Notes under the pieces: generated by a model
What the model saw: the letters and a program-made list of their open reading frames with translations, nothing else
The model's database searches: none
Told to the model about the DNA's origin: nothing
Shown: positions 1-44,889 of the stretch, one piece after another
How positions within the stretch are numbered: position 1 is the first letter of the stretch
Layout: each line of letters opens with the position of its first letter
Assembly (NCBI GenBank): GCA_902589505.1
Contig: CACITE010000007.1
Coordinates: 1-57,130 of the forward strand
Source: an uncultured Pelagibacteraceae bacterium
Lineage (GTDB): Bacteria; Pseudomonadota; Alphaproteobacteria; Pelagibacterales; Pelagibacteraceae
Reading direction: 5' to 3'
DNA length: 57,130 bases
Made by a program: the position numbers and the translations under genes

Positions 1-210
1 TAAAGTTCCAGAAGTTGATGATGCCAATATATTGTTTGCTTCATTAGCTACTGCTATAGGGGGTGGTATGCCCATAAAAATTAAAAAAGGAGTCATCAAA
101 AAACCGCCACCAACACCAAATAAACCAGATAAAAAACCTATTATATAACTAACAAAAAGTATTAATATTACATTTATCTGAACTTCAGCTATTGGTAAGT
201 AAATCTCCAT
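1..210 (-). CDS. TauE/SafE family permease, N-terminal part only
   Basis: Integral membrane permease of the TauE/SafE (DUF81) family, whose members are proposed to export sulfite or sulfonates or move other small anions; the substrate here cannot be told. The 70 visible codons start with MEIYLPIAEV and run off the left edge. They show a first membrane helix (about residues 12-28) followed by the glycine-rich signature GLFGVGGGFLMTP at about 29-41, typical of the first repeat of this family. The ATG is at 208-210. It is divergent from rpmB across a 109 bp spacer. The rest of the gene lies outside the window, so integrity cannot be judged. Confidence 0.85.
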   Translation of the reverse strand, partial: MEIYLPIAEVQINVILILFVSYIIGFLSGLFGVGGGFLMTPFLIFMGIPPPIAVANEANNILASSTSGTL

Positions 211-273
211 ATAAAAATCTTTAAATATAACTATTCCTCGGTATTAAGGTTGTCAATATTTTAATATATTATC

Positions 274-302
274 TTGATTCTATTTTCTGCTGGTTCTATA
301 TA
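274..302 (+). promoter_or_regulatory. Candidate sigma-70 promoter of rpmB
   Basis: TTGATT (274-279) and TATATA (297-302) are separated by exactly 17 bases, a near-consensus vegetative promoter. The expected start is near 309, giving a leader of only about 11 bases before the rpmB ATG at 320, with a weak AGGA at 308-311. The spacer also has to carry the promoter for the divergent TauE/SafE gene, which I could not place. Confidence 0.5.
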
Positions 303-319
303 GGCTTAGGAAATTTAAT

Positions 320-598
320 ATGACAAAAAGATGCGAGCTAACAGGGAAATCTCCCCTAAAAGGTCACAAAGTAAGTCACGCTAACAATAAAGCGAAAAGA
401 AAGTTTTTTCCAAATTTAAAAAAAGTAACTTTTAAGAGTGATATATTGAAGAGAAATATTGTACTTAAAGTTAGTAATGCAGCACTAAGAACAGTGGATT
501 ACAAAGGCGGATTAGACTTTTACCTTAAAAATACAAAATCAGCCAAGTTATCAGCAAGGGCAAAAAAACTTAAAAACAAAATAATTGAAGAAGCTTAA
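320..598 (+). CDS. rpmB: 50S ribosomal protein L28
   Basis: Large-subunit ribosomal protein bL28. The 92-residue product starts MTKRCELTGKSPLKGHKVSH, the typical L28 N-terminus, followed by a lysine-rich body containing NNKAKRKFFPNL. Size is normal for alphaproteobacterial L28 (about 90-100 residues). It lacks the paired CxxC zinc motif; only Cys5 is present, as in C-minus forms. It has its own good promoter just upstream, and its last 14 bases overlap the start proposed for the downstream transporter, so the two are probably cotranscribed. Confidence 0.97.
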   Translation: MTKRCELTGKSPLKGHKVSHANNKAKRKFFPNLKKVTFKSDILKRNIVLKVSNAALRTVDYKGGLDFYLKNTKSAKLSARAKKLKNKIIEEA

Positions 599-1172
599 TT
601 TCTTAACCGTGAAGGTAGAAAATAGATTTTTTTTTATCTTAGCCTTTTTTATGGCTTTAATAGTCGCGCTCTCAAACTACCTTGTTCAATTTCCCGTTAA
701 TTACTTTAAACTTCAAAATTTACTAACATACGGAGCTTTTACCTACCCGGTAGCATTTCTTATAACCGATTTATCAAATAGAAAATATGGAAAAAAAACT
801 GCTAAAAAAATTGTCTATTTAGGTTTTGCTATAGGAGTATTTTTAACATTTTATTTTTCTACAAATTATTCAGATCTAATTTCAATCAGAATTGCAATTG
901 GATCAGGAACAGCATTTCTTATAGCACAATTAATAGATGTTAATATTTTTGATAAATTAAGGAAAAAAATTTGGTTTGCGGCCCCCCTGATATCTTCCTT
1001 GGTTGGGTCTACAATTGATACATTTTTATTTTTTTCGATTGCTTTTTATGGAACAGAAATAAATTGGATAACTTTATCTTTTGGCGATTTATTTGTTAAA
1101 ATATTTGTTGCTATAATAATGTTAATACCTTTTAGATTTTTGCTTTTTTATACTCAAGAAAGTTCTACTTAA
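585..1172 (+). CDS. yhhQ: Queuosine precursor transporter (QPTR/YhhQ, VUT family)
   Basis: Inner-membrane protein of the DUF165/VUT family, known for import of queuosine precursors (preQ0/preQ1) for tRNA modification. It has about six hydrophobic helices. The stretch AFTYPVAFLITDLSNRKYG (about residues 51-69) contains the family signature of a YP...TD..N..YG helix-loop. Length of 195 residues fits the family (about 200-230). The start is uncertain: the frame opens at TTG 585, inside rpmB, and a GTG at 609 also gives a complete protein; the first ATG (651) would remove part of helix 1. The gene converges on cobT, leaving only five bases between the stops. Confidence 0.8.
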   Translation: MKKLNFLTVKVENRFFFILAFFMALIVALSNYLVQFPVNYFKLQNLLTYGAFTYPVAFLITDLSNRKYGKKTAKKIVYLGFAIGVFLTFYFSTNYSDLISIRIAIGSGTAFLIAQLIDVNIFDKLRKKIWFAAPLISSLVGSTIDTFLFFSIAFYGTEINWITLSFGDLFVKIFVAIIMLIPFRFLLFYTQESST

Positions 1173-1177
1173 AAAAA

Positions 1178-2980
1178 TTAATGTAGAGTTTTTTTATTCT
1201 TTTCAGAGAAAAGTTTAGTTAATTGATTTATCATAACGTCTCCAAGTTCATTAACATCAACTATTTTTACAGCCTTCTTATAGTATCTAGTTACGTCATG
1301 TCCAATTCCTATTGCTAAAATTTCTATGTTTGAATTTTCTTCAATCCATTTTACTGTTTGTTTTAAATGCTTTTCTAAGTAATCACCTGAGTTTACAGAT
1401 AACGTAGAATCATCAACAGGAGCTCCATCTGAAATTACCATTAGCACTTTTCTTTCTTCTTTTCTTAAAGCAATTCTTTTAAAGGCCCATAAAAGCGCTT
1501 CTCCATCAATATTTTCTTTTAACAAACCCTCTTTAAGCATTAAACCAAGATTTTTTTTTGATTGTCTCCAAGGTTTATCAGCTGATTTGTAAATAATATG
1601 TCTTAAATCATTTAGTCTTCCCGGATTTCTAGGTTTATTTTCTATATTCCATTTTTCTCTACTTTTTCCACCTTTCCAATTTTTAGTTGTAAAACCCAAT
1701 ACTTCTACTTTCACAGAACATCTTTCCAAGGTTCTAGACAAAATATCAGCGCAGATTGCTGCTACGGAAATTGGTCTTCCTCTCATAGAGCCGGAATTAT
1801 CAATAAGAAGAGTAACTATAGTATCTTTAAATTCAATTTCTTTTTCCATTTTGTAAGATAAAGGGTGGAATGGATCAATAATTATTCTTGATAACTTTGC
1901 GGAATCTAACATTCCTTCTTCTAAATCAAATTCCCAAGATCTATTTTGTTTTGCCAGCAGTTGTCTTTGTAGTTTATTTGCAAGTTTAGCAATTACACTT
2001 TGTAGATTTAATAGTTGTTGATCTAAATTTTTTCTAAGTCTAATAATTTCTTGCTCATTTTCCAGTTCTTCAGCATGCTTTATTTCATCGTACATATTGG
2101 TAAACACTTTGTATTTTTCTTTTTGAATATTTTTTTGAACATTTCTTACTAAATTTGTATCACCTTCTACTTCTTTTTCTGCAGAATCGTCCATTTCTTC
2201 AGAAAAATTGGGATCTTTTTCAACAATATTTAGATCGGAAACTTCTTCTTGATTCTCTCCTTTTTGGGTTGGGTCACCTTTTTCATCATTCTTTTCAGAC
2301 TCGGACGAGGTTTCTTTTGGCGTTTCTTTTTCTTCCTTTTTTTCGTTTAAATCTGAATCTTTGAAATCAAGACTATCAATTAAATTAGCAATTAACTGAT
2401 TGAATTGACTTTGGTTTTCGACACATTTATCTAATTTTAATAAATTTTGCTTTAAATTTTTGTCAAACAAATCTTTCCAATAACTTAATACTTTTTTTGT
2501 AGTATTGTTTTGTTTAATTTTAAAAAAATGGTTTCTTAAATACAACTCAAAAGCTTCGGTGATTGGAACATCTGCCTCGGTTTTTATTTCATCTTCCTTC
2601 TTATCTATAAATTTATTTTCATAACATTGAACTATATTATTTTTAACACCTTTTAATTTTTCTGACCCAATTTTTTCATATCTAATTTTTTCAGCAATTG
2701 CGTAAAGTGATTTACTTATATTACCCTTAGGTTCATTTTCTAGATAAATTTTTTTATCTGTATATTTTATTTTTAGTGCCTCAGAGTCTGCAAAAGCCCT
2801 TAAATTTGTGAAATCTTGTAATTTTTTTAAACTTACCACTTCGGGTAAATTTAGAGAATTTTCTTTCGAAGATGTGTTTTTGCCAAATTTAACCTCAAGA
2901 TCAAAATTTCCAGAAATAGCTTTTATTGTCGATGAAACAGCAGACTTGAATCTTTCTTTTAAGAATTCTTTTTCGTCCAT
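1178..2980 (-). CDS. cobT: CobT-like cobaltochelatase subunit (VWA domain)
   Basis: Homolog of CobT, which with the AAA+ protein CobS drives the CobN cobaltochelatase in aerobic cobalamin synthesis. The C-terminal von Willebrand A domain has the metal-ion-dependent adhesion motif DNSGSMRG at about residues 394-401. The middle (about 213-273) is extremely rich in Glu/Asp/Lys/Ser and likely disordered, as in other CobT proteins; a helical segment follows. I chose the ATG at 2978-2980 ([11 protein letters not shown]) because the longer frame would run into cobS. The cobS stop lies 13 bases upstream. Length of 600 is normal. No cobN or other corrin pathway gene is in the window, so the real partner is unknown. 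Confidence 0.9.
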
Positions 2981-2993
2981 TTTATTTATAAGT

Positions 2994-3968
2994 TTATATT
3001 TTAATGTTAATTGTAGATTCTGGTAAGTCGTCCCCAAAACATCTTTGGTAATATTCAGCAATTATGTTTTTTTCTAAATCATCGCATTTATTCAAAAATG
3101 TTACTCTAAATGCATATCCAGTATCCTTAAATATTTCAGAATTTTCAGCCCAATGAATGACTGTACGGGGACTCATGACAGTCGAAATATCACCATTCAC
3201 AAATCCTTTTCTTGTAAGGTCTGCCACTTTAATCATATTGGAAATTATTTCTTTACCTTCTTTGTTGTTGAAATTTTTAGATTTGGCAAGAACAATTTCT
3301 AGCTCTTTATCAAATTTTAAATAATTTAGTGTTGTTATAATATTCCATCTATCTAATTGACCTTGATTTATTTGTTGAGTTCCTTGATAGAGTCCGGTTG
3401 TATCTCCAAGCCCTATAGTATTAGCAGTAGCAAATAATCTAAAAAATGAATGTTGCTTTAAAACTTTATTTTGATCTAGCAAGGTAAAACTTCCTTCTCT
3501 TTCAAGAATTTTTTGGATTACAAACATTACATCAGGTCTACCTGCATCATATTCGTCAAAAACCAAAGCTATTGGATTTTGTAATGACCAGGGCAGAATT
3601 CCTTCTTTAAATTCTGTGATTTGTTTATTGTCTTTAATTACTATTGCATCTTTTCCTATTAAATCTATACGACTTATATGACTGTCTAAGTTTACTCTAA
3701 TACAAGGCCAATTTAATCTTGCTGCAACCTGCTCAATGTGAGTTGATTTTCCTGTTCCATGATAACCTTGGACTAGCACACGTTTGTTGAAAGCAAATCC
3801 AGAAATAATAGCTAAGGTAGTATCTCTATCAAATTTATATGTAGTATCTATTTCTGGAACGTACTCATTTCTTTTAGAAAAACCATCAACCTTCATTTCC
3901 GAATCTATTCCAAAAATTTGATTTACCGAAATCTTTATATCAGGAACTAATCCAGTTAAATTCGTCAT
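2994..3968 (-). CDS. cobS: CobS-like cobaltochelatase AAA+ subunit
   Basis: MoxR-type AAA+ ATPase, the motor partner of CobT. Walker A is GYHGTGKST at residues 68-76 and Walker B is VFDEYD at 136-141; a sensor-like FATANT motif follows. The N-terminal substrate-motif region is typical of CobS and the length (324) matches the family. It sits directly between the DnaJ-like gene (four bases between start and stop) and cobT, an order common in alphaproteobacteria. Known CobS/CobT use ATP to insert cobalt through CobN; with no CobN seen here, a chelatase role is by homology only. Confidence 0.92.
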
Positions 3969-3972
3969 TTAT

Positions 3973-4491
3973 TTACTTTCTAGTCATTAACAATTTTAAG
4001 TGACTATATGCTAAAGTTATTTTTTTTAATTTGTCTTCAAATTGTTTATTACCTGAGTTTCTATCAGGGTGAAATTTTTTTACAAGAGTTTTAAACTTCT
4101 TCTGTATTTTTGGCCAATCAGCGTGAAATTCTAATCCCATAATATTGAAGGCATCTCTATCTTTTTCAGTAAACTTTCTGTTTTTAATATTACTTATTAT
4201 TTTTTCTCCATGGAAGAAACCAAATTTGTCATTAAGGGCGTTATTCCAAAGAATATTAAAAAAATTATCTGGAGAACCAAATTTTTGTGTAGGTCTATGC
4301 CAAGTAATATCAGACTTCAAAAAAAATTCTATTTCACTTTGGGACATTCCCTCAAAATAGTTCCAGCTTTTGTTAAATAGTTTAATATGTTCCTCACAAA
4401 GCCATTTATAGTCTTTGCTATTATCTTTTTCTAGTGGAGCCTTAAATTTTCCACTTTCTTTGCAATTTTTCCACTCACAAATATTTTCCAT
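3973..4491 (-). CDS. DnaJ-domain protein with N-terminal zinc-type motif
   Basis: J-domain co-chaperone-like protein of 172 residues. The J domain is at the C-terminus, with the HPD tripeptide at 141-143 (KKFHPDRNSG), which in this family stimulates Hsp70 ATPase. The N-terminus carries a possible zinc site: Cys5, Cys10, Cys32 and His35. This architecture (Cys/His N-terminus, linker with WNYFEGMS, then C-terminal J domain) is recurrent in alphaproteobacteria next to cobS. It is the first gene of the dnaJ-like/cobS/cobT run, which suggests a chaperone linked to the CobST machine. That link is inference. Confidence 0.85.
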   Translation of the reverse strand: MENICEWKNCKESGKFKAPLEKDNSKDYKWLCEEHIKLFNKSWNYFEGMSQSEIEFFLKSDITWHRPTQKFGSPDNFFNILWNNALNDKFGFFHGEKIISNIKNRKFTEKDRDAFNIMGLEFHADWPKIQKKFKTLVKKFHPDRNSGNKQFEDKLKKITLAYSHLKLLMTRK

Positions 4492-4534
4492 TGTTAAAAA
4501 CTATTATATGTTTTAAGATTTTAGAAGTAAAATA

Positions 4535-4786
4535 ATGAATTTCCTTGAGCAGATTAAAGAAAAGATTAATAATAAAATAAATCCAGAAAATATAATTTTA
4601 ATTGATAATAGCCACATTCACGCTAAACATAAATCTTTTGAAAAAAACAAATTTCATTTAAAGGTTATAATTAAATCAAAAAAATTAAAAAGCATGAATA
4701 AAGTTATGGCACATAAAATAATCTTTTCAATTTTAAAAGACGAAATGAGATATAAAATTCATGCGTTAGAAATAGAAATCCAGTAG
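4535..4786 (+). CDS. bolA: BolA family protein
   Basis: Small BolA-fold protein (83 residues). Family members bind monothiol glutaredoxins and Fe-S clusters and take part in iron homeostasis or Fe-S delivery. The conserved NSHIHAKH-like stretch (about 25-32) and the C-terminal KVMAHKIIFSILKDEM with its conserved His (about 61) fit BolA; no Cys is present. In alphaproteobacteria a bolA gene is commonly divergent from the dnaJ-like/cobS pair, as here, with a 43-base shared start region. It converges on aroB with only three bases between stops. Confidence 0.88.
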   Translation: MNFLEQIKEKINNKINPENIILIDNSHIHAKHKSFEKNKFHLKVIIKSKKLKSMNKVMAHKIIFSILKDEMRYKIHALEIEIQ

Positions 4787-4789
4787 GTT

Positions 4790-5902
4790 TTAAGAAAAGT
4801 AAGAAGTTAAAAATTTTTTTATCACCTTATCCTCTAGAAAATATTCTTTTGGTTTGGTAGTCTTTCCTATTTTATTTAGTAAAATTAAATTAATTTTTTC
4901 ACTTACATTTTTTTTATCTTTTTTCATAAAGTTAACAATTTTTTTAATATCTGTTTTTTTAAAAATTTTGTTTATATGCATTGGTAATTTTAAATCACGG
5001 TAGTGTTTTTTTATTAGAGATAACTCTTTATATGTTAACTTTCCTCTCTTGTATGATAGATCGCTAGCTATCATCATGCCTAATAATACAGCTTCACCAT
5101 GATTTAGGCTTTTAGAGAAATTTTTTGCAGCTTCAAATCCATGACCAAAAGTATGACCGAAGTTTAAAATCATTCTTAGGTCTTTTTCTTTTTCATCTTT
5201 TTCGACTACCTTGCACTTTATTTTACAACTTTTAATTATAGACTCTTTGAGAAAAAAATTATTTCTTTTATAAATTATTTTTTTTCCATTTTTTAAAAGC
5301 CAAAAAAAAAGTTTTTTATTCTGTATTAGCGAATGTTTTAAAATTTCTCCATAACCCGAAACTATTTCTCTTTGGGATAAACTTTTTAATGTTGATACGT
5401 CACTTAATATGAAATCAGGTTGATAAAAAGTTCCTATAAGATTTTTACCTTGTTTTGAATTAACACCAGTTTTTCCTCCTATAGAAGCATCTACCTGAGC
5501 TAATAATGTAGTAGGTATATTTATAAATTTTAAACCTCTTTTTGTTAGATTAGATACAAAAGCTGATAAGTCTCCTATAATACCCCCTCCTAAAGAAATC
5601 ACGCAGTCTGATTTATTAAAATTTTCGTTTAAGAGCTTTTCAATAATTTTTGTAGCAATTGAAATATTTTTTATTTTTTCACTAGGTTTTAATTTATAAA
5701 TTATTATCTTATATTTTTTTAATGAACTAGTTAGTTTTTTTAATATAAGCCTAGGTAATCTGCCATCACTAATTATACATATTTTTTTAACACCAGGTAT
5801 ATTTTTTTCAATCAAAGTACCAGTTGAATTTATAATATTATTTCCAAAAAAAATTGGATAGTTTTTGCTTTTCGTTTTAACAATAAGTTTATTTTTTTTC
5901 AT
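4790..5902 (-). CDS. aroB: 3-dehydroquinate synthase
   Basis: Second step of the shikimate pathway: converts DAHP to 3-dehydroquinate using NAD and a divalent metal. Seen in the sequence: an N-terminal nucleotide-binding half with SLGGGIIGDL, the GGKTGVN segment, and metal-ligand regions NFGHTFGHGFE and LNHGEAVLLGM. Length of 370 is normal. Its start overlaps the end of aroK by 14 bases, so the two are translationally linked in the common aroK-aroB order. The 3' end nearly abuts bolA on the other strand. Confidence 0.96.
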   Translation of the reverse strand: MKKNKLIVKTKSKNYPIFFGNNIINSTGTLIEKNIPGVKKICIISDGRLPRLILKKLTSSLKKYKIIIYKLKPSEKIKNISIATKIIEKLLNENFNKSDCVISLGGGIIGDLSAFVSNLTKRGLKFINIPTTLLAQVDASIGGKTGVNSKQGKNLIGTFYQPDFILSDVSTLKSLSQREIVSGYGEILKHSLIQNKKLFFWLLKNGKKIIYKRNNFFLKESIIKSCKIKCKVVEKDEKEKDLRMILNFGHTFGHGFEAAKNFSKSLNHGEAVLLGMMIASDLSYKRGKLTYKELSLIKKHYRDLKLPMHINKIFKKTDIKKIVNFMKKDKKNVSEKINLILLNKIGKTTKPKEYFLEDKVIKKFLTSYFS

Positions 5903-35043: not shown

Positions 35044-35601
35044 AATTCTACCAAAAATTATTTTTGAGATCCCGTATGTTCTCTGTTCTATTATTTCGAA
35101 ATAATCAGGTAGTTTTTCTTTGGTAGTTTTGTTTCGGTGTAAAATTATAATTCCTTTTTTGTCTAGAATATTTTTATTAAAAATTAATTCGATTAATTTT
35201 TCAATATTTTTATCTTGAAAAGGAGGATCGCAGAAAATCAAATTAAGTTTTGATTTAAATATATTTTTTTTTATTAAATTAAATGCATCACTGCAAAATA
35301 TATTTGTATTTTCTTTTGCTTTTAGTTTTTGAACATTTTTTTCTAAAATTTTTACTATATCTTTTGATTTTTCTATAAAGATAACATTTTTAGTTCCTCT
35401 CGAAATGCATTCGAGTCCAAATGATCCAGATCCAGCATATAAGTCAAGTATATTTGATTTTTCAAACCGGAATGCTATTTTATTTGAATGGATCAATAAG
35501 TTAAAAATGCTTTCTCTAACCAAATCTTTAAGAGGTCTTGTAATTTTATTTTGCGGAAGATGTAAAGTGTAACCTTTAAGTTTGCCTGCTATTATTCTCA
35601 T
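35035..35601 (-). CDS. rsmD: 16S rRNA (guanine966-N2)-methyltransferase
   Basis: SAM-dependent methyltransferase of 188 residues. It begins MRIIAGKLKGYTLHLP with the RPLKDLVRESIFNLL helix near 22-36, SAM motif I LDLYAGSGSFGLECISRG near 52-69, and motif IV FCDPPFQ near 122-128, all typical of RsmD. It lies alone on the minus strand, converging with pgi (overlap of nine bases). Confidence 0.95.
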   Translation of the reverse strand: MRIIAGKLKGYTLHLPQNKITRPLKDLVRESIFNLLIHSNKIAFRFEKSNILDLYAGSGSFGLECISRGTKNVIFIEKSKDIVKILEKNVQKLKAKENTNIFCSDAFNLIKKNIFKSKLNLIFCDPPFQDKNIEKLIELIFNKNILDKKGIIILHRNKTTKEKLPDYFEIIEQRTYGISKIIFGRILF

Positions 35602-35643
35602 TTAAAATATATATATTCTCGATATACTAATGATTATTTATAT

Positions 35644-35841
35644 ATGAACAGAAATAAAGCAAAACTTAAATTTGGTCCAAACAATTTTGAAATAATAGAT
35701 GATGGCGATTATGTAGTTTGTGCAGTTTCGGGTAAAAAGATCTCGCTTAATCAATTGACCTATTGGAATGTTGAATTACAAGAAGCATATTTTTCACCAA
35801 AAGAAGCTCAACAAAGATATGAAGAATTAAATAAAAAATGA
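35644..35841 (+). CDS. DUF2093 family protein
   Basis: 65-residue cytoplasmic protein. The core NFEIIDDGDYVVCAVSGK (about 16-33), followed by LNQLTYWNVELQEAYFSP, is the DUF2093 signature, widespread in alphaproteobacteria and of unknown function. It overlaps the start of the M23 peptidase gene by four bases (ATGA). Confidence 0.9.
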   Translation: MNRNKAKLKFGPNNFEIIDDGDYVVCAVSGKKISLNQLTYWNVELQEAYFSPKEAQQRYEELNKK

Positions 35842-36623
35842 AAATTTTAGTTAGTATAGTTTTTATATTTTTTACAACCTCAAGTTTTGCTGCAACATTT
35901 GATGGTAAATTTATTCAAGGCGCATTTATTCTTGGAAAAACAGAACCAGGTTCTGAGGTTTTTATTGATAAAAAAAAAGTAAAAGTTACATCTGATGGAT
36001 ATTTTGCTTTTGGATTGGGTAGAGATAGAAAAAATGATGTAGTAATAACAATAAATGAAAAAAAAATTGTAAAAAAGGTTTTTAAGAGAAAATATAAAAT
36101 TCAAAGAATAGACGGCCTAGAAGAAAAAAAAGTTACACCTCCAGAAGAAGTTTACGAAAGAATTAAAAGAGAAAATAAATGGATAGGAGAGGCCAGAGCC
36201 GTCAATAGTGATTTATCATTTTTTAAAAATAAATTTATAAATCCACTAGAAAACGCAATCGTCACCGGTGTATATGGAAGTCAGAGAATTTTAAATGGAA
36301 AACCTAAGTGGCCTCATTATGGTATAGATTTTGCCGCTGACGAAGGTACAGAAATTAAAGCCATGTTAGACGGTGTCGTAACTTTAGCTGAGCCAGATCT
36401 ATTTTATACTGGTGGCACTTTAATATTTGATCATGGACATGGTATTTCAACGTTGTACATGCATATGAAAACATTGATGGTTAAAAAAGGTCAAAAAGTT
36501 AAACAAGGAGATGTTATAGGAACTGTTGGTTCAACAGGAAGATCAACAGGAGCACATTTAGATGTTAGACTTAATTGGTTTCAGACACGTTTAGATCCGG
36601 CAACAGTCCTTGATATTAAGTAG
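35838..36623 (+). CDS. M23-family peptidase, periplasmic
   Basis: 261-residue exported peptidoglycan hydrolase-like protein. Signal peptide MKILVSIVFIFFTTSSFAAT with cleavage after Ala18 or so. The C-terminal LytM/M23 domain has His160 and Asp164 (HYGIDFAA) and the His209 region LYMHM. Where the classical second metal motif is HxH, it has GAHLDVRLNW (His240, Asp242). That variant is recurrent in this proteobacterial subfamily. It likely cuts murein cross-links or activates an amidase; which is unknown. Confidence 0.9.
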   Translation: MKILVSIVFIFFTTSSFAATFDGKFIQGAFILGKTEPGSEVFIDKKKVKVTSDGYFAFGLGRDRKNDVVITINEKKIVKKVFKRKYKIQRIDGLEEKKVTPPEEVYERIKRENKWIGEARAVNSDLSFFKNKFINPLENAIVTGVYGSQRILNGKPKWPHYGIDFAADEGTEIKAMLDGVVTLAEPDLFYTGGTLIFDHGHGISTLYMHMKTLMVKKGQKVKQGDVIGTVGSTGRSTGAHLDVRLNWFQTRLDPATVLDIK

Positions 36624-36624
36624 T

Positions 36625-37311
36625 TTAAATATATTTTTCTTTTTTCAAAGAAATAACAAATTTGCAGCTAGCACAAGCCGGATTATATTCTGGCGGTTTT
36701 TCCATTAAACAAATATCGATAATATCAGTAACTCTTTTTATCAATTCATCATGACATCTATTACCTTTTAGATACAAAGTTTCAAATTTCATATAACAAG
36801 ATCCTTTAGAAATTTCAGTAATTTCCTTTGGTTCAAAAAGATATAATCCTAGTTCTTCAATATCAGAAAATTTTGGAGTTTTAGTATTTGGATTTTGAAA
36901 AATTGCTGCATAACTTTCTAATTGCAGTTTGTAGTTTTCAATTTTTGATGGACTAATTTTAGTTGTTTTTAAATCGATAATTCCATATTTTTTTGGATTG
37001 GTTTTAAATTCAATAACTACATCAGTTTTGCCACTAATTATAAAAGGTCTCCTTTTATTGTCTAGGAGTGTAGACGATCCTATAAATCCATTAAGTTCTG
37101 TCATTATACGTCCATCAGGTAAGTTTTTTGACATTAATTTTACAGATTGAGTGATTAAGAATTTTTTTTGAATCAAATCAAACGAATTAAATATCGGGGG
37201 AAAAAAAGCATCAAGCTTTATGTTTCTATGCGATAACCACAAACATCTTTTACATTTTAGCGCATAATCAAGTCCACTAGGAGCGACTTTGAAAATCTTT
37301 TTTTTATCCAT
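36625..37311 (-). CDS. PD-(D/E)XK nuclease-fold protein with two CxxC pairs
   Basis: 228-residue protein with the RecB/Cas4 nuclease core: Asp97 in GKTDVVIEF, Asp113 and Lys115 in IIDLKTTK, and QLESYA (Gln130, Tyr134). Cys20/Cys23 (CKRC) near the start and Cys213/Cys216 (CASC) near the end flank the core, as expected for an Fe-S or zinc clamp like that in Cas4 and AddB. No cas gene or CRISPR array is nearby. It is the last gene of the minus-strand envelope run, two bases after the LpxL-type gene. Function unknown; could be DNA repair. Confidence 0.75.
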   Translation of the reverse strand: MDKKKIFKVAPSGLDYALKCKRCLWLSHRNIKLDAFFPPIFNSFDLIQKKFLITQSVKLMSKNLPDGRIMTELNGFIGSSTLLDNKRRPFIISGKTDVVIEFKTNPKKYGIIDLKTTKISPSKIENYKLQLESYAAIFQNPNTKTPKFSDIEELGLYLFEPKEITEISKGSCYMKFETLYLKGNRCHDELIKRVTDIIDICLMEKPPEYNPACASCKFVISLKKEKYI

Positions 37312-37313
37312 CT

Positions 37314-38189
37314 TTATTTCCAGCGATTATGTGACCAAATCCATTGCTTGGGATTTTTAATTATCATTTTCTCAATGATATGATTAATTTTAAGTGTAAT
37401 ATTTTTAGTATCTTCTTCGGCGTTACCTGTTTTTTCAATTTTATATGGTTCGTGTATGGTCATTTCAAAACTAGGACCTACTTTTCTTTCCAAAGAAATG
37501 GGTACTAATTTGCAATTATACTTTAAAGCTATTTGCGCAGGTATAGTTGTGGTGTGAGCAGGTTTATTAAAAAAAAGAGTTCTAGGCCCTTCACTGACAC
37601 GTTGATCTACCATTAGAGCAATGCTGTAACCATCTTTAATTTTACTTATTATTTCTCTCATGCCCATTCTGCCTTTTGGAATTTGATTAGGGCAAATATA
37701 CTTCATTCTTAAATATTCCATTAATGGATTTAAAAAAAAATTATTTAAAGGCCTATATATTGCGGCACATTTAATTCCGGATTTATCTAATTCCATCGCC
37801 ATAAGTTCAAAATTTGCAAAATGGCCAGAATAAAAAATTACAGCTTCGTTATTTTTTTTAATTTGATTTAAATAATTGACCCCATTTATTTTTATATGAT
37901 TAAAATTTGTTCTGTTAAATTTAAAATCCTTTAAAAAAACATATTCTGCAAAAGTTCTTCCAATATTTGACCACATACCATTAATAATTTCAGTTACTTT
38001 TTGCTCATCAATTTTCCCTAACCCGATTTTAATATTTTGCTTGGTAATCTGCGTTGATCTAAAAAGTGGGCCAATAAGTTTTCCTAAAATATTTCCTAAA
38101 GCAGATGCATTTCTTAATCCTATTATTTTAAAAATAGTAAATAATGAAATTATGCTTATAAATTCAAAAAAGTATTTTAAAATTTTCAT
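37314..38189 (-). CDS. lpxL: Lipid A biosynthesis acyltransferase (LpxL/HtrB type)
   Basis: Adds a secondary acyl chain to Kdo2-lipid A precursor at the inner membrane. 291 residues with an N-terminal hydrophobic anchor, the catalytic H-x4-E in SGHFANFELM (near 121-130), AIYRPLNN near 143, and DQRVSEGP near 194. The start overlaps lpxK by four bases. Which position it acylates cannot be told. Confidence 0.92.
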   Translation of the reverse strand: MKILKYFFEFISIISLFTIFKIIGLRNASALGNILGKLIGPLFRSTQITKQNIKIGLGKIDEQKVTEIINGMWSNIGRTFAEYVFLKDFKFNRTNFNHIKINGVNYLNQIKKNNEAVIFYSGHFANFELMAMELDKSGIKCAAIYRPLNNFFLNPLMEYLRMKYICPNQIPKGRMGMREIISKIKDGYSIALMVDQRVSEGPRTLFFNKPAHTTTIPAQIALKYNCKLVPISLERKVGPSFEMTIHEPYKIEKTGNAEEDTKNITLKINHIIEKMIIKNPKQWIWSHNRWK

Positions 38190-39115
38190 ATAATTTTTTT
38201 TATTTCTTCAATAAATTGATTTTTATTTTCAATTTCAATATTTATTTTTATATATTTAATTTTTTCTCTATAATTTTTAGGGATTCTAAAATAATCTTTT
38301 TCAGTTGTTGTTAAAATACTATTATTTTCCTTTATTTTATCTAATAAATTTTTTAATTCATATTCCGTATATCTATGATGATCAGGAAATTTTATTGTTT
38401 CCAAAACATTTAATTTATGATTCTTTAATAAATCAAAAAAATTCTCTGGATTTCCAATACCAGCAAAAGCAGTAATTTTTTTTTGTTTAAATTCTTCGAT
38501 ATTTTCTGGTTTATAACTGCTATAAAAAATTTTAATTACATTGTTTTTTTTTAGTATTTTATTTTCCATATTCTCATTTTTTTTTCCATTTATCATTACG
38601 CAATCTGCTCTTTTTAAAGCAGAAAGATTTTCTCTTAGAGGACCAGACGGTATGGTCAATCCATTGCCAACCCATTGCTTTTCATTAAAACAAACTATAG
38701 AAAAATTTTTTTTTATGGAAAAATCCTGAAATCCGTCATCAAGAACAACAACATTTGCATTATTTTTTTTTGCTTCTTCAATAGCTTTTGATCTTTTTTT
38801 ATTTTGGTAAATTGGACCGATTTTTTCTTGAAGTTTTACTTCGTCCTGAAACAATTTATATTCTTTTCTAATAAAAGCAGGGTTTGCTTTTAGATCTTTT
38901 AAAATTGAAAATATTTCAATGCATAATGGCGTTTTTCCAGTTCCACCTATATATATATTGCCAACACAAATAACAGGTATAGTGGATTCTTTAGTTTTAG
39001 TTACAAGGCGATTCAATAAACTTAATAGCTTAATCAACAATGAGATTGGAAAAAGCAAAACTGAAAAAAAGGAGATTTGATTTTTATCCCAAAACTTTGG
39101 TTTAAAAAAATTCAT
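38186..39115 (-). CDS. lpxK: Tetraacyldisaccharide 4'-kinase
   Basis: Phosphorylates the 4' position of the lipid A disaccharide. P-loop kinase with an N-terminal membrane-associated helix; Walker A is NIYIGGTGKTPLCIE near 53-67, then VVLDDGFQDFSI near 117-128 and TTEKDYFRI near 274. Length of 309 is typical. Sits between waaA and lpxL in a compact lipid A set. Confidence 0.95.
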   Translation of the reverse strand: MNFFKPKFWDKNQISFFSVLLFPISLLIKLLSLLNRLVTKTKESTIPVICVGNIYIGGTGKTPLCIEIFSILKDLKANPAFIRKEYKLFQDEVKLQEKIGPIYQNKKRSKAIEEAKKNNANVVVLDDGFQDFSIKKNFSIVCFNEKQWVGNGLTIPSGPLRENLSALKRADCVMINGKKNENMENKILKKNNVIKIFYSSYKPENIEEFKQKKITAFAGIGNPENFFDLLKNHKLNVLETIKFPDHHRYTEYELKNLLDKIKENNSILTTTEKDYFRIPKNYREKIKYIKINIEIENKNQFIEEIKKII

Positions 39116-39124
39116 CTAAATTAT

Positions 39125-40402
39125 TTATATATATTTTTTTAATTCTAAGATCACACTATCAAATATATTTTGTCCGTAATTTTCTATTTTATTTGTAATC
39201 TCATCGTTTTTTTCTCTATTTTCATTAAATTCTTCAACTAGAGATAGACTTAATTCCTCTGAATTTTTGATCATTTTTGTAACACCCATTTCTTTTAAAT
39301 ATTCATAAATTTCAGCAAAGTTGCTTACGTTTGGACCGTGAAAAATTTTGCAGCCAAATCTTGCAGGTTCAATTGGGTTTTGTCCACTATTCATTATTAG
39401 AGTTTTTACCAACGACTTTCCTACAAAAACATATTTGGAAATATTATAAAACTTCAGAGATTCCCCAAAAGAATCTACTAACAATATATCTGTATTTTCA
39501 TTTATCTGATTGGGGTCACTATAAAAGGCAACTTGCAAATTAAGATTTGATAATTCAGTTTTAATTTTTTCCGCTCTATCAATATGTCTTGGTATTATAA
39601 TGGTTAAAATGTCGTTGTGATTTTTTTTAATTTTGATATGAGATTTTGCGCACAACAATTCTTCTGTTGCATGAGTGCTAGCCGCACACCATATTTTTCT
39701 ATTTTTTATTTTGTCTAAGAAAAGAGGATTTAATTCTAGATTTAATTTATTTTTAGTTTGTGAAAATTTAAGATTACCATAATTTTTTATATTTTTAGCT
39801 CCTAAAATTTTGAGAAAATTTTCACTCTGTCTATTTGATGCAATACATATTTCAAATTTTGAAAATATTTTTTTTGCAAAAATTTTAGCCAACCTCCATC
39901 TTCTAAAAGATTTTTCTGTTATTCTTGCATTTAATAATAATAAGGGAATTTCTTTTTTAGATGCACTTAAAATTAAATTGGGCCAAATTTCAGAATCAAT
40001 AAAAATAGATAAATTTGGCTTCCAATGTTCTAAAAATTTTTTTACTAAGATTGGTATATCTATTGGTAAATATTGGTGAACCACTTTTGCATTTTGTTTG
40101 TATTTTTTTTCTAGAATTTTTCCTGAGCTTAAAGTTATGGATGTTAATAAAATTTTATTGATTTTTTTTTCCTCTATAAAATTTTCAATTAATGGAAGAA
40201 TGCTCATTGCTTCTCCAACGCTAGCTACATGAAACCAAATTAAAAATCCACCACCTCTTTCTATGTTTATTTTAGATAATTTTTCTTTATATCTTATACT
40301 ATCTTCTTTTTTTCTTAATTTTCTAAAATATAAATAAATTGGAACAAAAGGGTAGAAAAGGTATGTAAAAATTTTATACCATGTATACATAAAATTATGC
40401 AC
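39125..40402 (-). CDS. waaA: Kdo transferase
   Basis: Transfers 3-deoxy-D-manno-octulosonate to lipid A precursor; GT30 family with an N-terminal membrane anchor (MYTWYKIFTYLFYPFVPIYL). Recognisable are FHVASVGEAMSILPL near 52-66 with the catalytic Glu, PIDIPILVKKFLEHWKP, and SEIWPNLI near 134-141. Length of 425 is normal. The frame starts eight bases inside the end of the ABC exporter gene. Confidence 0.94.
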   Translation of the reverse strand: MHNFMYTWYKIFTYLFYPFVPIYLYFRKLRKKEDSIRYKEKLSKINIERGGGFLIWFHVASVGEAMSILPLIENFIEEKKINKILLTSITLSSGKILEKKYKQNAKVVHQYLPIDIPILVKKFLEHWKPNLSIFIDSEIWPNLILSASKKEIPLLLLNARITEKSFRRWRLAKIFAKKIFSKFEICIASNRQSENFLKILGAKNIKNYGNLKFSQTKNKLNLELNPLFLDKIKNRKIWCAASTHATEELLCAKSHIKIKKNHNDILTIIIPRHIDRAEKIKTELSNLNLQVAFYSDPNQINENTDILLVDSFGESLKFYNISKYVFVGKSLVKTLIMNSGQNPIEPARFGCKIFHGPNVSNFAEIYEYLKEMGVTKMIKNSEELSLSLVEEFNENREKNDEITNKIENYGQNIFDSVILELKKYI

Positions 40403-43003: not shown

Positions 43004-43974
43004 GGAATAATAATTGCTGGACCAATAATTTTTCTTGCTTCCAAATCCTTATGAGATTGAATCACATTATCCAGTTTATATTTATCAAATATTTTTATTT
43101 TTACTCTTCCAAATTTTATTTGTTCAAATAATTTTTCAGCACCCTCATTTAACAAATTTTTATTTGTAAAATAATGGCCGCCTGTTGGGCGAGTAAAAAA
43201 TAGGCTTTTTGGCATTATATGTTTTTTTACATCTATATTTTTTACTGGACCAGAAGCATTTCCAAAAGAAACCATCATTCCTGTGTTTTTTAAACAAGCT
43301 ATAGAATCTTCAAAAGTTTTTGCTCCCACACCATCGTAGACCACAGGAACTCCATTACCTTTTGTAAAATTCATAACTTTTTCAACAAAATTTTCTTTAG
43401 AATAATTTATAACCAAATCGCAACCATTTTTTTTTGCTACGCTTATTTTTTCATCCGATCCTACTGTTCCAATAACTTTACATCCAAGGCCTTTAGCCCA
43501 CTGACAAAAAATTTGTCCAACACCACCCGCTGCAGCATGAAAAAGCACAGTGTCATTAGCTTTTACTGGGTAAGTTTTATACAAAAGATAATAAACTGTA
43601 AGACCTTTTGTCATTATTGATGCAGCAATCTCTAAACTAATTCCATCCGGTATTTTTACTACTTTGTCAGCAGGATAAATTCTTTCTTCAGCATAAGATC
43701 CAATCGGAGCGCCTCCATACGCAATGTTATCTCCAACGTTTAAATCTTTCACCTTTGCGCCAATTTTTTTTATAATTCCCGAAGCTTCTACTCCAATGCC
43801 AGAGGGCAGAGAAAGGGGATATAATCCAGATCTATGATAGGTATCAATATAATTAAGACCAATTGCTTTGGTTTCAATTAAAACATCATTAGGTCCAGGC
43901 TCTCCTATTTTTACATTTTCTATCTGAAGAACTTCAGGACCACCATTTTTTTCAATTTTTACTACTCTTGCCAT
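43000..43974 (-). CDS. NADPH:quinone oxidoreductase-like (MDR family)
   Basis: 324-residue medium-chain reductase without zinc ligands, like QOR of E. coli. Seen: the N-terminal KIGEPGPNDVLIETKAIGLN region, GIGVEASGIIKKIG near 59-72, the Rossmann motif HAAAGGVGQIFCQWAK near 145-160, and VVYDGVGAKTFEDS near 211. It would use NADPH to reduce a quinone or enone. Being next to ubiA suggests a quinone link, but that is inference. Confidence 0.9.
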   Translation of the reverse strand: MARVVKIEKNGGPEVLQIENVKIGEPGPNDVLIETKAIGLNYIDTYHRSGLYPLSLPSGIGVEASGIIKKIGAKVKDLNVGDNIAYGGAPIGSYAEERIYPADKVVKIPDGISLEIAASIMTKGLTVYYLLYKTYPVKANDTVLFHAAAGGVGQIFCQWAKGLGCKVIGTVGSDEKISVAKKNGCDLVINYSKENFVEKVMNFTKGNGVPVVYDGVGAKTFEDSIACLKNTGMMVSFGNASGPVKNIDVKKHIMPKSLFFTRPTGGHYFTNKNLLNEGAEKLFEQIKFGRVKIKIFDKYKLDNVIQSHKDLEARKIIGPAIIIP

Positions 43975-44211
43975 TTATTTACTATGAGAACCATCACAGA
44001 ATGGTTGATTATTGGTTTGCTTACAAATGCATAAATATATTTTTTTAGTTTCTTCGATTTTAAAGATTACAGGTCTATACTCAGTATCCTTGTGAGAGTT
44101 GTCACAAAAAGGTTGTTTTTTACTTAATCCACAACTACACCATGCATAATTTTTTCCCTTTACTGCATCAAATATATACGGTTCGTTTCCTGCTCTTTTT
44201 TCTTTGTTCAT
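43975..44211 (-). CDS. Tandem CDGSH iron-sulfur domain protein
   Basis: 78-residue protein with two complete CDGSH-type [2Fe-2S] motifs: CSCGLSKKQPFCDNSH near 25-40 and CICKQTNNQPFCDGSH near 61-76. The three Cys and one His per motif are intact. Such small bacterial two-motif proteins are redox or Fe-S proteins of unknown partner. It abuts the oxidoreductase gene and follows the HAD gene, so it may share their redox role. Confidence 0.93.
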   Translation of the reverse strand: MNKEKRAGNEPYIFDAVKGKNYAWCSCGLSKKQPFCDNSHKDTEYRPVIFKIEETKKIYLCICKQTNNQPFCDGSHSK

Positions 44212-44220
44212 TTTTTTTCT

Positions 44221-44889
44221 TTAAATAATTTTTAGCAATTCTTCTAAATTGTTTATAACATATTTTGGTTTATAACTTAATTTATCAAACACTTTATTTA
44301 ATCGATTAACCCACACGGCATTATATCCAAAAATACCTCCACCAGAAACATCCCAAGTATTTGAACTCATAAAACAAACATTTTCTGGTTTACAGCTGTA
44401 CTTTTTAATGGGTATTTCATAAACCTTTGAATCGGGTTTATAAATACCGACAGTTTCGATAGAAAAAATATCATCAAAATAATTTTTTATATTATTACTT
44501 TTTACTAATCCCTGCAGAAGATCTGGAGTTCCGTTGGACAAAATAGCAATTTTAATATTTCTAGTTTTAAGGCCGTCTAAACATTTTTTTACTTCAGGGT
44601 AGGGGTTAAGTTTTTTATATAAATCTAACAATTCATTTCTCATTTCTTTTTTTATTTTATAAGTTTCCATTGTATGATCTAAGGAGTCTTCTGTAATTTC
44701 CCAAAAATTTTTATGTTTTTTCATAAGACTTCTCAACCAAGTATACTCAAGCTGGGTAGTTCTCCAGGCGTTAGCAAAACCTTCCCATTTGTTTCCAAGC
44801 TTTTCTTTACATTGTTTAGCAGCAGAATTTACATCAAATAAAGTACCGTAAGCATCAAAAACACATGCTTTAATATTTTTTATTTTCAT
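44221..44889 (-). CDS. Haloacid dehalogenase, type II
   Basis: 222-residue HAD hydrolase of the (S)-2-haloacid dehalogenase group. Motif I CVFDAYGTLFDVNS (nucleophile near Asp11), the WRTTQLEYTWLRSLM cap segment near 42-56 with the usual Arg, motif II AILSNGTPDLL near 115-125, and FMSSNTWDVSGG near 171-182. These positions fit true dehalogenases, yet natural substrates are unknown. It overlaps the MBL-fold gene upstream by four bases. Confidence 0.88.
   Translation of the reverse strand: MKIKNIKACVFDAYGTLFDVNSAAKQCKEKLGNKWEGFANAWRTTQLEYTWLRSLMKKHKNFWEITEDSLDHTMETYKIKKEMRNELLDLYKKLNPYPEVKKCLDGLKTRNIKIAILSNGTPDLLQGLVKSNNIKNYFDDIFSIETVGIYKPDSKVYEIPIKKYSCKPENVCFMSSNTWDVSGGGIFGYNAVWVNRLNKVFDKLSYKPKYVINNLEELLKII

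What the first reader, a model, noticed from the sequence alone, without database searches (positions are those of the whole stretch)
36625..37311. Cas4/RecB-like nuclease fold with paired CxxC in an envelope operon
Asp97, Asp113, Lys115 and QLxxY are all in place, and CxxC pairs at 20/23 and 213/216 could close an Fe-S cluster as in Cas4 or AddB. It stands alone, with no CRISPR, at the end of a lipid A gene run. Its job is unknown.
Basis: partly seen in the sequence, partly recalled or inferred. Interest (0 to 1): 0.5.

Follow-up and report, generated by a model that had tools for sequence, protein, structure and literature searches.

The report
Swappable Cas4-like defence nuclease in SAR11
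A small DNA-cutting enzyme in ocean SAR11 bacteria sits in a chromosomal slot where very different versions of the same enzyme replace one another, and its relatives elsewhere ride in virus-restriction gene sets, so it is probably an exchangeable part of these bacteria's antiviral defence.

Summary
In detail: 36625-37311(-) encodes a 228-aa Cas4/RecB-like PD-(D/E)XK nuclease with the stated catalytic residues, and its four Cys are conserved. It is not random envelope cargo. Of 147 Pelagibacteraceae (SAR11) genomes searched, 63 carry a relative, 60 of them exactly one. In the window's genus the gap between the lipid A acyltransferase and M23 peptidase genes is a slot holding five divergent nuclease types (about 30% identical; flanks 75-84%), one on the opposite strand, while nearby gene order stays fixed. 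A position after gltX behaves alike in another genus. At seven other loci, in four genera, relatives lead or abut restriction gene sets: Z1-DUF4420-Dcm (twice), Dcm-TdeIII, Dcm-HNH, EVE-Dcm, McrBC, SNF2-NOV_C. Four of the five slot types have supported relatives among these; the window's own type has only a weak link. No AddA was found. Best reading: an interchangeable anti-phage nuclease acting on free-ended or restricted DNA where RecBCD/AddAB is missing. The role rests on context, not experiment. The Cys pattern is 2+2, not Cas4's 1+3, so it is Cas4-like rather than Cas4. New variant of a known kind, at odds with the published view that solo cas4 evolves mainly vertically.

The parts
36625..37311 (-). 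Cas4/RecB-like PD-(D/E)XK nuclease gene, type A of slot 1, 228 aa
37243..37254 (-). N-terminal C-x-x-C (Cys20, Cys23; reads C-K-R-C)
   Evidence: read; Cys23 68/68 and Cys20 67/68 relatives
37021..37032 (-). G94-x-x-D97, first acidic catalytic motif
   Evidence: 68/68 relatives
36967..36975 (-). D113-x-K115, PD-(D/E)XK catalytic motif
   Evidence: D113 67/68 (Glu in the other), K115 68/68
36910..36924 (-). Q130-L-x-x-Y134 (QhxxY) motif
   Evidence: Q130 and Y134 68/68 relatives
36664..36675 (-). C-terminal C-x-x-C (Cys213, Cys216)
   Evidence: 68/68 relatives; no Cys after it in 67/68
36624..37313 (.). slot 1: variable position between two convergent conserved genes
37314..38189 (-). flank: lipid A biosynthesis acyltransferase (PF03279)
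   Evidence: conserved flank
35838..36623 (+). flank: M23 peptidase (PF01551)
   Evidence: conserved flank
38186..40402 (-). genes before it on the same strand: LpxK (38186-39115, PF02606) and Kdo transferase (39125-40402, PF04413)

Best explanation
The gene encodes a Cas4-like PD-(D/E)XK nuclease with a conserved four-Cys set (a likely Fe-S site) that is an interchangeable component of SAR11 anti-phage defence. SHOWN by sequence: conserved active site and four Cys; about one copy per genome; replacement by very different versions in a fixed chromosomal slot; relatives of the same clades as first or abutting gene of several unrelated restriction gene sets; no AddA above threshold in the 147 genomes searched. 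INFERRED: the protein binds an Fe-S cluster and cuts DNA from free ends, mainly 5' to 3' as characterised Cas4 proteins do, or at branched ends. In restriction gene sets it would destroy DNA that the partner enzyme or helicase has opened, the job that RecBCD/AddAB does in other bacteria. As a solitary gene, as here, it would be expressed with the lipid A operon and act on phage DNA with exposed ends or on replication intermediates, or finish DNA cut by other nucleases. Exchange of versions would follow phage counter-adaptation, by homologous recombination through the conserved flanking genes.
For: Identity: Pfam PDDEXK_1 above cut-off; nearest solved sequence is Cas4 SSO0001 (4ic1), E 5e-5; AlphaFold model pLDDT 82.8, pTM 0.79; Foldseek rows 2-5 are SSO0001, row 1 a DinG with a nuclease part; second-look Z 11.7 over 158 residues for 4ic1, 12.1 for a type I-C Cas4 chain, 13.2 for AdnAB chain A. 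Replacement: of 19 slots with both flanks (G000 plus the 18 loci), 16 hold a nuclease, of five types; 53 different-type pairs (12 genomes) average 29.7% nuclease identity (21-43) against 75.5% and 84.4% for the two flanking proteins; monophyly of the 18 slot-1 sequences is rejected, AU p 3e-62; at other nearby junctions the variable genes are orthologues that come and go. Restriction context: seven SAR11 loci (G006, G083, G087, G102, G107, G125, G129), in four genera, plus IMG/VR contig L148; in the 10 genomes that have both Dcm and the nuclease, 5 have them within 5 kb, binomial P 6e-8 to 5e-6 for an assumed 1.2-3% per genome. Tree: types B, C, D and E group with restriction-linked copies at supported forks. 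AddA over cut-off in 0 of 147 genomes, against 1 of 14 control genomes; absence of RecBCD and of the RecF pathway in SAR11 is also in print (PMC12374537, passages).
Against: No experiment. The window copy itself has no restriction neighbour. Restriction sets do not need the nuclease: 4 of 6 genomes with Z1 and 12 of 22 with Dcm lack it, and 5 of the 10 genomes with both have them apart. Of 14 loci outside the three recurrent positions only 4 have a restriction set; the other 10 show none that I recognised, most of those neighbours being read by eye only. Adjacency could partly reflect shared insertion hotspots: three of the seven loci are at the same position after gltX. Type A's nearest restriction-linked relative (G125) joins through long branches at an open fork, so the link is weakest for the window's own type. 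Within type A, dN/dS is low, with no sign of arms-race sequence change. Hudaiberdiev et al. 2017 concluded that cas4 genes show no evidence of direct involvement in arms races (PMC5704561, abstract). The AddA search had sub-threshold matches in 123 of 147 genomes; those listed lie mostly in frames of 680-755 aa, smaller than AddA, but the list was cut. AddB was not searched with its own model.
Confidence: 0.55

Rival explanations
1. Housekeeping DNA repair or recombination: the nuclease resects double-strand breaks in place of the missing AddAB/RecBCD, and its versions are exchanged neutrally in a highly recombining lineage.
For: AddA over cut-off in 0 of 147 genomes; RecBCD absent in print (PMC12374537, passages); nearly universal in the window's genus: 19 of 23 genomes, against 16.0 expected from listed completeness if every genome had it; purifying selection; the third position lies beside an exonuclease-I-like gene (PF08411).
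Against: Missing from most genomes of other SAR11 genera that have no AddA either: found in 4 of at least 26 in g3, and in none of the genomes seen from g7, g9 and g12. Position, strand and type change while neighbours do not. Repeated membership of restriction gene sets.
Confidence: 0.2
2. Shared-hotspot coincidence: the nuclease is a generic mobile cargo gene that lands at the same safe operon ends as restriction genes, without working with them.
For: Solitary in most loci; slot 1 also holds glycosyltransferase-like and methyltransferase genes; restriction sets exist without it; 10 of 14 loci outside the recurrent positions have no recognised restriction gene.
Against: The order nuclease-Z1-DUF4420-Dcm recurs in two genera with nucleases of different classes; gaps of only -1 to 10 nt to the next gene of the set in G006, G083, G102, G107, G125 and G129.
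Confidence: 0.15
3. Selfish or mobile-element gene: a nuclease that spreads itself by cutting chromosomes lacking it (homing-like), or a former phage exonuclease kept as superinfection exclusion.
For: Recurrent replacement at one site; related PHROGs include phage exonucleases; two IMG/VR contigs carry relatives; phage PD-(D/E)XK proteins share the fold.
Against: No relative in 50,697 phage records for four queries; one of the two IMG/VR contigs carries a restriction set beside the nuclease, though whether the contigs are truly viral was not settled; several insertion sites; the fold matches are end-processing nucleases.
Confidence: 0.07
4. Envelope-linked role: the nuclease acts on incoming nucleic acid at the cell surface together with the lipid A genes.
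For: Position 2 nt after the acyltransferase gene.
Against: In the 18 genomes of genera g5, g7, g9 and g12 where both flanking matches lie on one contig, they are 11-17 nt apart with no nuclease; in other genera the nuclease follows gltX or lies by an exonuclease gene; type D is on the opposite strand, behind the peptidase gene. A signal peptide was not looked for with a tool.
Confidence: 0.03

Closest known systems
Cas4 (SSO0001, Pcal_0546; CRISPR adaptation nuclease)
   Same: RecB-like PD-(D/E)XK fold, GxxD / DxK / QhxxY motifs, four conserved Cys near the two ends; SSO0001 is the nearest solved sequence.
   Different: Cys are 2+2 rather than 1+3; far under the NCBIfam cas4 cut-off (19.1 against 65 bits); no CRISPR array seen in the window.
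solo-Cas4 and PF12705 Cas4-like proteins (Hudaiberdiev et al. 2017, PMC5704561)
   Same: Stand-alone, in small environmental genomes; the paper reports solo-Cas4 beside restriction genes in several DPANN genomes, and UvrD-Cas4 fusions beside type III restriction and Dcm genes (section 8 and passages).
   Different: Here unfused, in SAR11 (neither SAR11 nor Pelagibacter occurs in that paper's main text), and exchanged in fixed slots, whereas the paper finds solo cas4 mainly vertical.
AddB/AddA, AdnAB, RecB nuclease domains
   Same: Fold and active-site arrangement (AdnAB chain A Z 13.2, AddAB chain A Z 10.4).
   Different: No helicase part, 228 aa; AddA over cut-off in 0 of 147 SAR11 genomes.
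Argonaute-associated Cas4-family protein ACE1 (9iab, 9iac)
   Same: A Cas4-family protein tied by its title to a defence-type gene; E 0.0098 by sequence, Z 9.7-10.2.
   Different: Named for Argonaute, not restriction genes; no paper on it found in the library.
Z1-DUF4420-Dcm restriction islands (PMC5379612, one passage; PADLOC MzaC/MzaD)
   Same: Same partner genes as in G083 and G107.
   Different: The passage names no Cas4-like nuclease in the Corynebacterium island (three of its proteins are unclassified there).

Membership tests
PF12705 PDDEXK_1 (Cas4-like) | score over Pfam gathering threshold | tested here: met
   22.9 against 22 bits; barely for the window protein and type D (23.8), clearly for types B, C and E (39-43 bits)
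PF12705 PDDEXK_1 (Cas4-like) | intact catalytic motifs | tested here: met
Cas4 (CRISPR-associated) | RecB-like fold with QhxxY | tested here: met
   (predicted model)
Cas4 (CRISPR-associated) | one N-terminal and three C-terminal Cys | tested here: not met
   2+2 in 67 of 68 relatives; no Cys after Cys216 in those 67; Cas4 pattern from PMC12538437 passages and the 4R5Q alignment
Cas4 (CRISPR-associated) | NCBIfam cas4 equivalog score | tested here: not met
   19.1 against 65 bits
Cas4 (CRISPR-associated) | CRISPR array or cas1/cas2 nearby | tested here: not met
   no short-spaced direct repeats in the window; the four window neighbours scanned are envelope genes; cas genes elsewhere in the genome were not sought
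Cas4 (CRISPR-associated) | bound Fe-S cluster and nuclease activity | not testable with these tools
   needs purified protein
solo-Cas4 | single-domain gene outside CRISPR loci | tested here: met
   228 aa
solo-Cas4 | mainly vertical inheritance (as reported) | tested here: not met
   slot-1 nucleases not monophyletic, AU p 3e-62; flank against nuclease identity
AddB / AddA | large helicase-nuclease with its partner | tested here: not met
   228 aa; AddA over cut-off in 0 of 147
anti-phage restriction system component | gene set with restriction or modification genes | tested here: inconclusive
   met for relatives at seven SAR11 loci and on L148, not for the window copy
anti-phage restriction system component | protection against phage | not testable with these tools
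   no experiment

The most novel reading that the evidence does not exclude
SAR11 cells carry a one-gene innate immune system: a Cas4-like 2+2-Cys nuclease, about one per genome, that destroys phage DNA without a methyltransferase partner and that populations diversify by swapping whole, very different versions into fixed operon-end slots. The same nucleases serve as the plug-in 'finisher' of many restriction systems, standing in for the RecBCD/AddAB that SAR11 lost.
Probability: 0.3. Interest if true: 0.8.

Novelty: new variant of a known kind. Interest (0 to 1): 0.6.

Why it matters
SAR11 is described as the most abundant clade of surface marine bacteria (abstract of PMC10504331 in the listing). 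A near-universal, exchangeable nuclease in one of its genera would be a defence layer that scans by known systems could overlook, because a lone gene scores only weakly as Cas4 (inference). It would also turn an open question, what solo Cas4 does, into a direct test: five natural versions, an empty slot and restriction-linked sisters are there to compare, and the replacement pattern disagrees with the published statement that solo cas4 evolves mainly vertically (PMC5704561, abstract).

Tried and rejected
Phage origin: tblastn of types A, B, an A-like protein (from G002) and E against 50,697 phage records gave nothing; IMG/VR scans with A, B and D gave nothing, and with the A-like and E types one contig each. 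The genome-contig scan with the window protein returned only five close SAR11 relatives, which by position and identity are the same places as five of the G handles. Plasmids: one hit with one query, a 26% relative in Flagellatimonas with no restriction gene named nearby, though a helicase-related gene lies about 2.5 kb away. AddB ortholog: rejected on size and on AddA not being found. CRISPR adaptation: rejected for the window. Envelope function: disfavoured on outgroup empty slots and the other positions. In the fold search AddAB chain B (3u4q_B) is listed but low (Z 8.0), which is not taken as exclusion.

A small ORF (cluster c37) before several restriction-linked copies first looked like a partner; its sequence shows nothing of a known regulator to my eye, and since it lies between the nuclease and the flanking genes in G083 I took it for a resident host gene and dropped it; I did not look for it in genomes without the nuclease. 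The weak outlier G031:C17 (E 9.6e-6) stays in the 68; alone among them it lacks Cys20 and has a later Cys, i.e. the Cas4-like pattern. The four genomes of the window's genus without a hit (G003, G007, G011, G016) are 55-73% complete. Genus sizes for other genera are lower bounds because the tool did not list every genome without a hit.

The labels gltX, lexA, exonuclease-I-like and thioredoxin rest on Pfam for one member each and on clustering for the rest; trpC, trpD, folC and accD, and the GIY-YIG-like gene on L148, are my reading. The expansion of the name MZA is recalled and not used.

Full report
1. The observation. The ORF at 36625-37311 (minus, 228 aa) is as described. It matches Pfam PDDEXK_1 at E 9.6e-5, just over the gathering score, PADLOC Cas4 at 3.4e-6 and a phage exonuclease family at 7.5e-7; the NCBIfam cas4 score is far below its cut-off (19.1 against 65 bits). 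The genome held is a 0.92-Mb, 76%-complete assembly with one copy; the five closest named records are uncultured Pelagibacteraceae, so the window is from SAR11.

2. Relatives. A protein search found relatives in 10 of 23 genomes of the genus and 22 of 147 of the family sample. A profile of 19 diverse relatives (alignment A1) found 63 of 147 with 66 matches: one each in 60 genomes, two in G018, in G022 (5% contamination) and in G031 (8% contamination, second match weak). In the window's genus it is 19 of 23, against 16.0 expected from listed completeness if every genome had it. By contrast it is in 4 of at least 26 genomes of genus g3 and in none of those seen of g7, g9 and g12. In 67 of the 68 no Cys follows Cys216, so the invariant set is 2+2.

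3. The slot. The acyltransferase and M23 genes are convergent neighbours. In the 18 genomes of genera g5, g7, g9 and g12 where both matches lie on one contig they are 11-17 nt apart (match ends, stop codons included), so the slot is empty there. In the window's genus and g10, 16 of 19 slots with both flanks hold a nuclease; one is empty (G002, 28 nt) and two hold only a glycosyltransferase-like gene (best Pfam match just under its cut-off) with an FkbM-type methyltransferase gene, shortened in G004 (G004, G010). The nucleases are of five types: A (window, G008, G009, G013, G014, G017), B (G001, G005, G012, G015, G022), C (G021), D (G018, and the half-slot G022:C19) and E (G019, G020, G031). 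D lies on the opposite strand, overlapping the end of the M23 gene by 4 nt. Different types average 29.7% identity (53 pairs, 21-43) while the flanking proteins average 75.5% and 84.4%; same-type pairs average 78.0%, with 76.7% and 90.4% for the flanks (13 pairs; 12 genomes used). So the acyltransferase is no more alike within types than between them. Control: over about 8 kb on either side (less where contigs end) the order is otherwise constant. Two junctions have a gene that is present or absent, and these are orthologues (422-424 aa, 74-82% identical, in 15 of 17; 279-285 aa, 65-91%, in 14 of 15), the second with small companion ORFs; besides there are three single cases of an extra ORF of 100 aa or more. 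The slot is the only junction seen with unlike occupants.

4. Other positions. In genus g4, 26 of at least 29 genomes have the nuclease, all in the interval after gltX (PF00749 for one member): 20 with one 255-256-aa type, 3 with a 220-aa type of the other class, and 3 with further types accompanied by restriction genes (G083, G087, G125). A third position is beside an exonuclease-I-like gene and a thioredoxin gene in g6, g13, g14, G010 and G086. At the first two positions the nuclease starts within -47 to +29 nt of the same-strand gene before it, apart from G083 and G125 (162-163 nt).

5. Restriction context. G107 (genus g2) and G083 (g4): nuclease, Z1, DUF4420 and Dcm genes in a row on one strand. 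G125 (g4): nuclease, PIF1-like helicase, a small ORF and a TdeIII-type endonuclease, with a convergent Dcm gene. G087 (g4): Dcm and HNH_2 nuclease genes convergent with the nuclease. G006 (g1): nuclease, EVE-domain protein, a 276-aa protein without a Pfam match, Dcm. G102 (g3): nuclease, McrB-like and McrC genes. G129 (g2): nuclease, a protein with a sub-threshold ParB-like match, SNF2 helicase, NOV_C protein. IMG/VR contig L148: nuclease divergent from a 454-aa protein without a Pfam match, SNF2 helicase and NOV_C protein. G086: beside a 1134-aa helicase-nuclease matching PADLOC MkoA; not counted among the seven. Of 14 loci outside the three recurrent positions, 4 have a restriction set (G006, G102, G107, G129); ten have none that I recognised (G002, G004, G018:C3, G031:C17, G053, G084, G096, G116, G121, G127). 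Of these ten, only neighbours of G053 (two) and G096 (one) were scanned; the rest were read or left. Dcm occurs in 22 of 147 genomes; 10 of these also have the nuclease and in 5 of the 10 the two are within 5 kb. With an assumed 1.2-3% chance per genome (my estimate from genome size) the binomial probability of 5 or more is 6e-8 to 5e-6. Z1 occurs in 6 of 147; the two with the nuclease have it adjacent, the other four lack it.

6. Tree. In a tree of the 68 sequences type C is sister to the G083 copy (100/100); type D groups with G087, G107 and G129 (100/100); type E lies in a supported clade with G102 (99/91); type B with G006 and third-position copies (100/99). Type A is nearest to G125, but that fork is open and the tool warns of long branches meeting there. 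Holding all 18 slot-1 sequences together is rejected (AU p 3e-62); the group was defined by position, after the types had been seen, and includes G029, which has only the acyltransferase flank.

7. Structure. The nearest solved sequence is Cas4 SSO0001 (E 5e-5). An AlphaFold model from eight sequences (pLDDT 82.8, pTM 0.79) matches SSO0001, AdnAB, type I-C Cas4, MGME1, Exo5, RecE and Dna2 chains. Foldseek TM-scores are modest (0.46-0.54 of the query for SSO0001), and residues 36-40 are poorly modelled. Phage PD-(D/E)XK proteins also match. The model does not test metal or cluster binding.

8. Literature. Hudaiberdiev et al. 2017 (PMC5704561; abstract, section 8 and passages) report solo Cas4 in small environmental genomes, mainly vertical inheritance, no evidence of arms races, and restriction links for UvrD-Cas4 fusions and for several DPANN solo Cas4 genes; SAR11 and Pelagibacter do not occur in the main text. 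Absence of RecBCD and the RecF pathway in SAR11 is stated in PMC12374537 (passages). PMC5379612 (one passage) describes a Z1-DUF4420-Dcm island in Corynebacterium. Searches for SAR11 with defence, hotspot, recombination and Cas4 terms listed no paper that by its title or abstract start is about this locus; passages of PMC2217521 and PMC9426551 for nuclease and restriction terms do not mention it. Passages of PMC4285135 had no bearing.

9. Judgement. Identity as a Cas4-like nuclease is close to certain. The slot with exchanged versions is shown. A defence role is the best reading of the context, at about 0.55 for the explanation as stated; the end-degradation mechanism and the RecBCD stand-in idea are inference. 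The defence link is weakest for the window's own type A.

Noticed in passing
slot 1 in G004, G005, G010, G014, G015 (L095, L096, L097, L099, L100): The same slot also takes a 355-364-aa glycosyltransferase-like gene, with or without a methyltransferase gene (FkbM or Methyltransf_24), i.e. possible surface-glycan cargo.
   Followed up: partly
window 35601-35838 and 43974-44221: A 422-aa gene (15 of 17 genomes) and a 279-aa gene (14 of 15) present at these junctions in relatives are absent from the window; they are orthologues among the relatives.
   Followed up: partly
L148 (IMG/VR contig), 1-5762: An SNF2 and NOV_C gene set, like part of that of G129, sits beside the nuclease on a contig classed as viral, with a gene that looks to me like a GIY-YIG endonuclease.
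   Followed up: partly
genus g4 loci, interval after gltX (e.g. L168, L035, L040): The interval after gltX is a small restriction island in three genomes (G083, G087, G125) and holds a nuclease without recognised restriction genes in 23.
   Followed up: partly
L108 (G009), 64-940: The acyltransferase gene of G009 is split into two overlapping ORFs, by mutation or assembly error.
   Followed up: no
L130 (G086), 601-4005: A 1134-aa protein with a weak N-terminal Cas4-like match, RNase_H_2 and AAA_11/12 helicase parts lies convergent with the nuclease; large frames with a PDDEXK_1 match also occur in G012 and G060, within about 3 kb of Dcm genes.
   Followed up: no
L113 (G018:C3), L133 (G096), L147: Nuclease copies lie near proteins made of DUF4116-type repeats (Pfam match obtained for L133 only; the others read by eye).
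   Followed up: no
L146 (G031:C17), 2317-3087: The one distant relative with a Cas4-like 1+3 Cys pattern; its genome is 8% contaminated.
   Followed up: no
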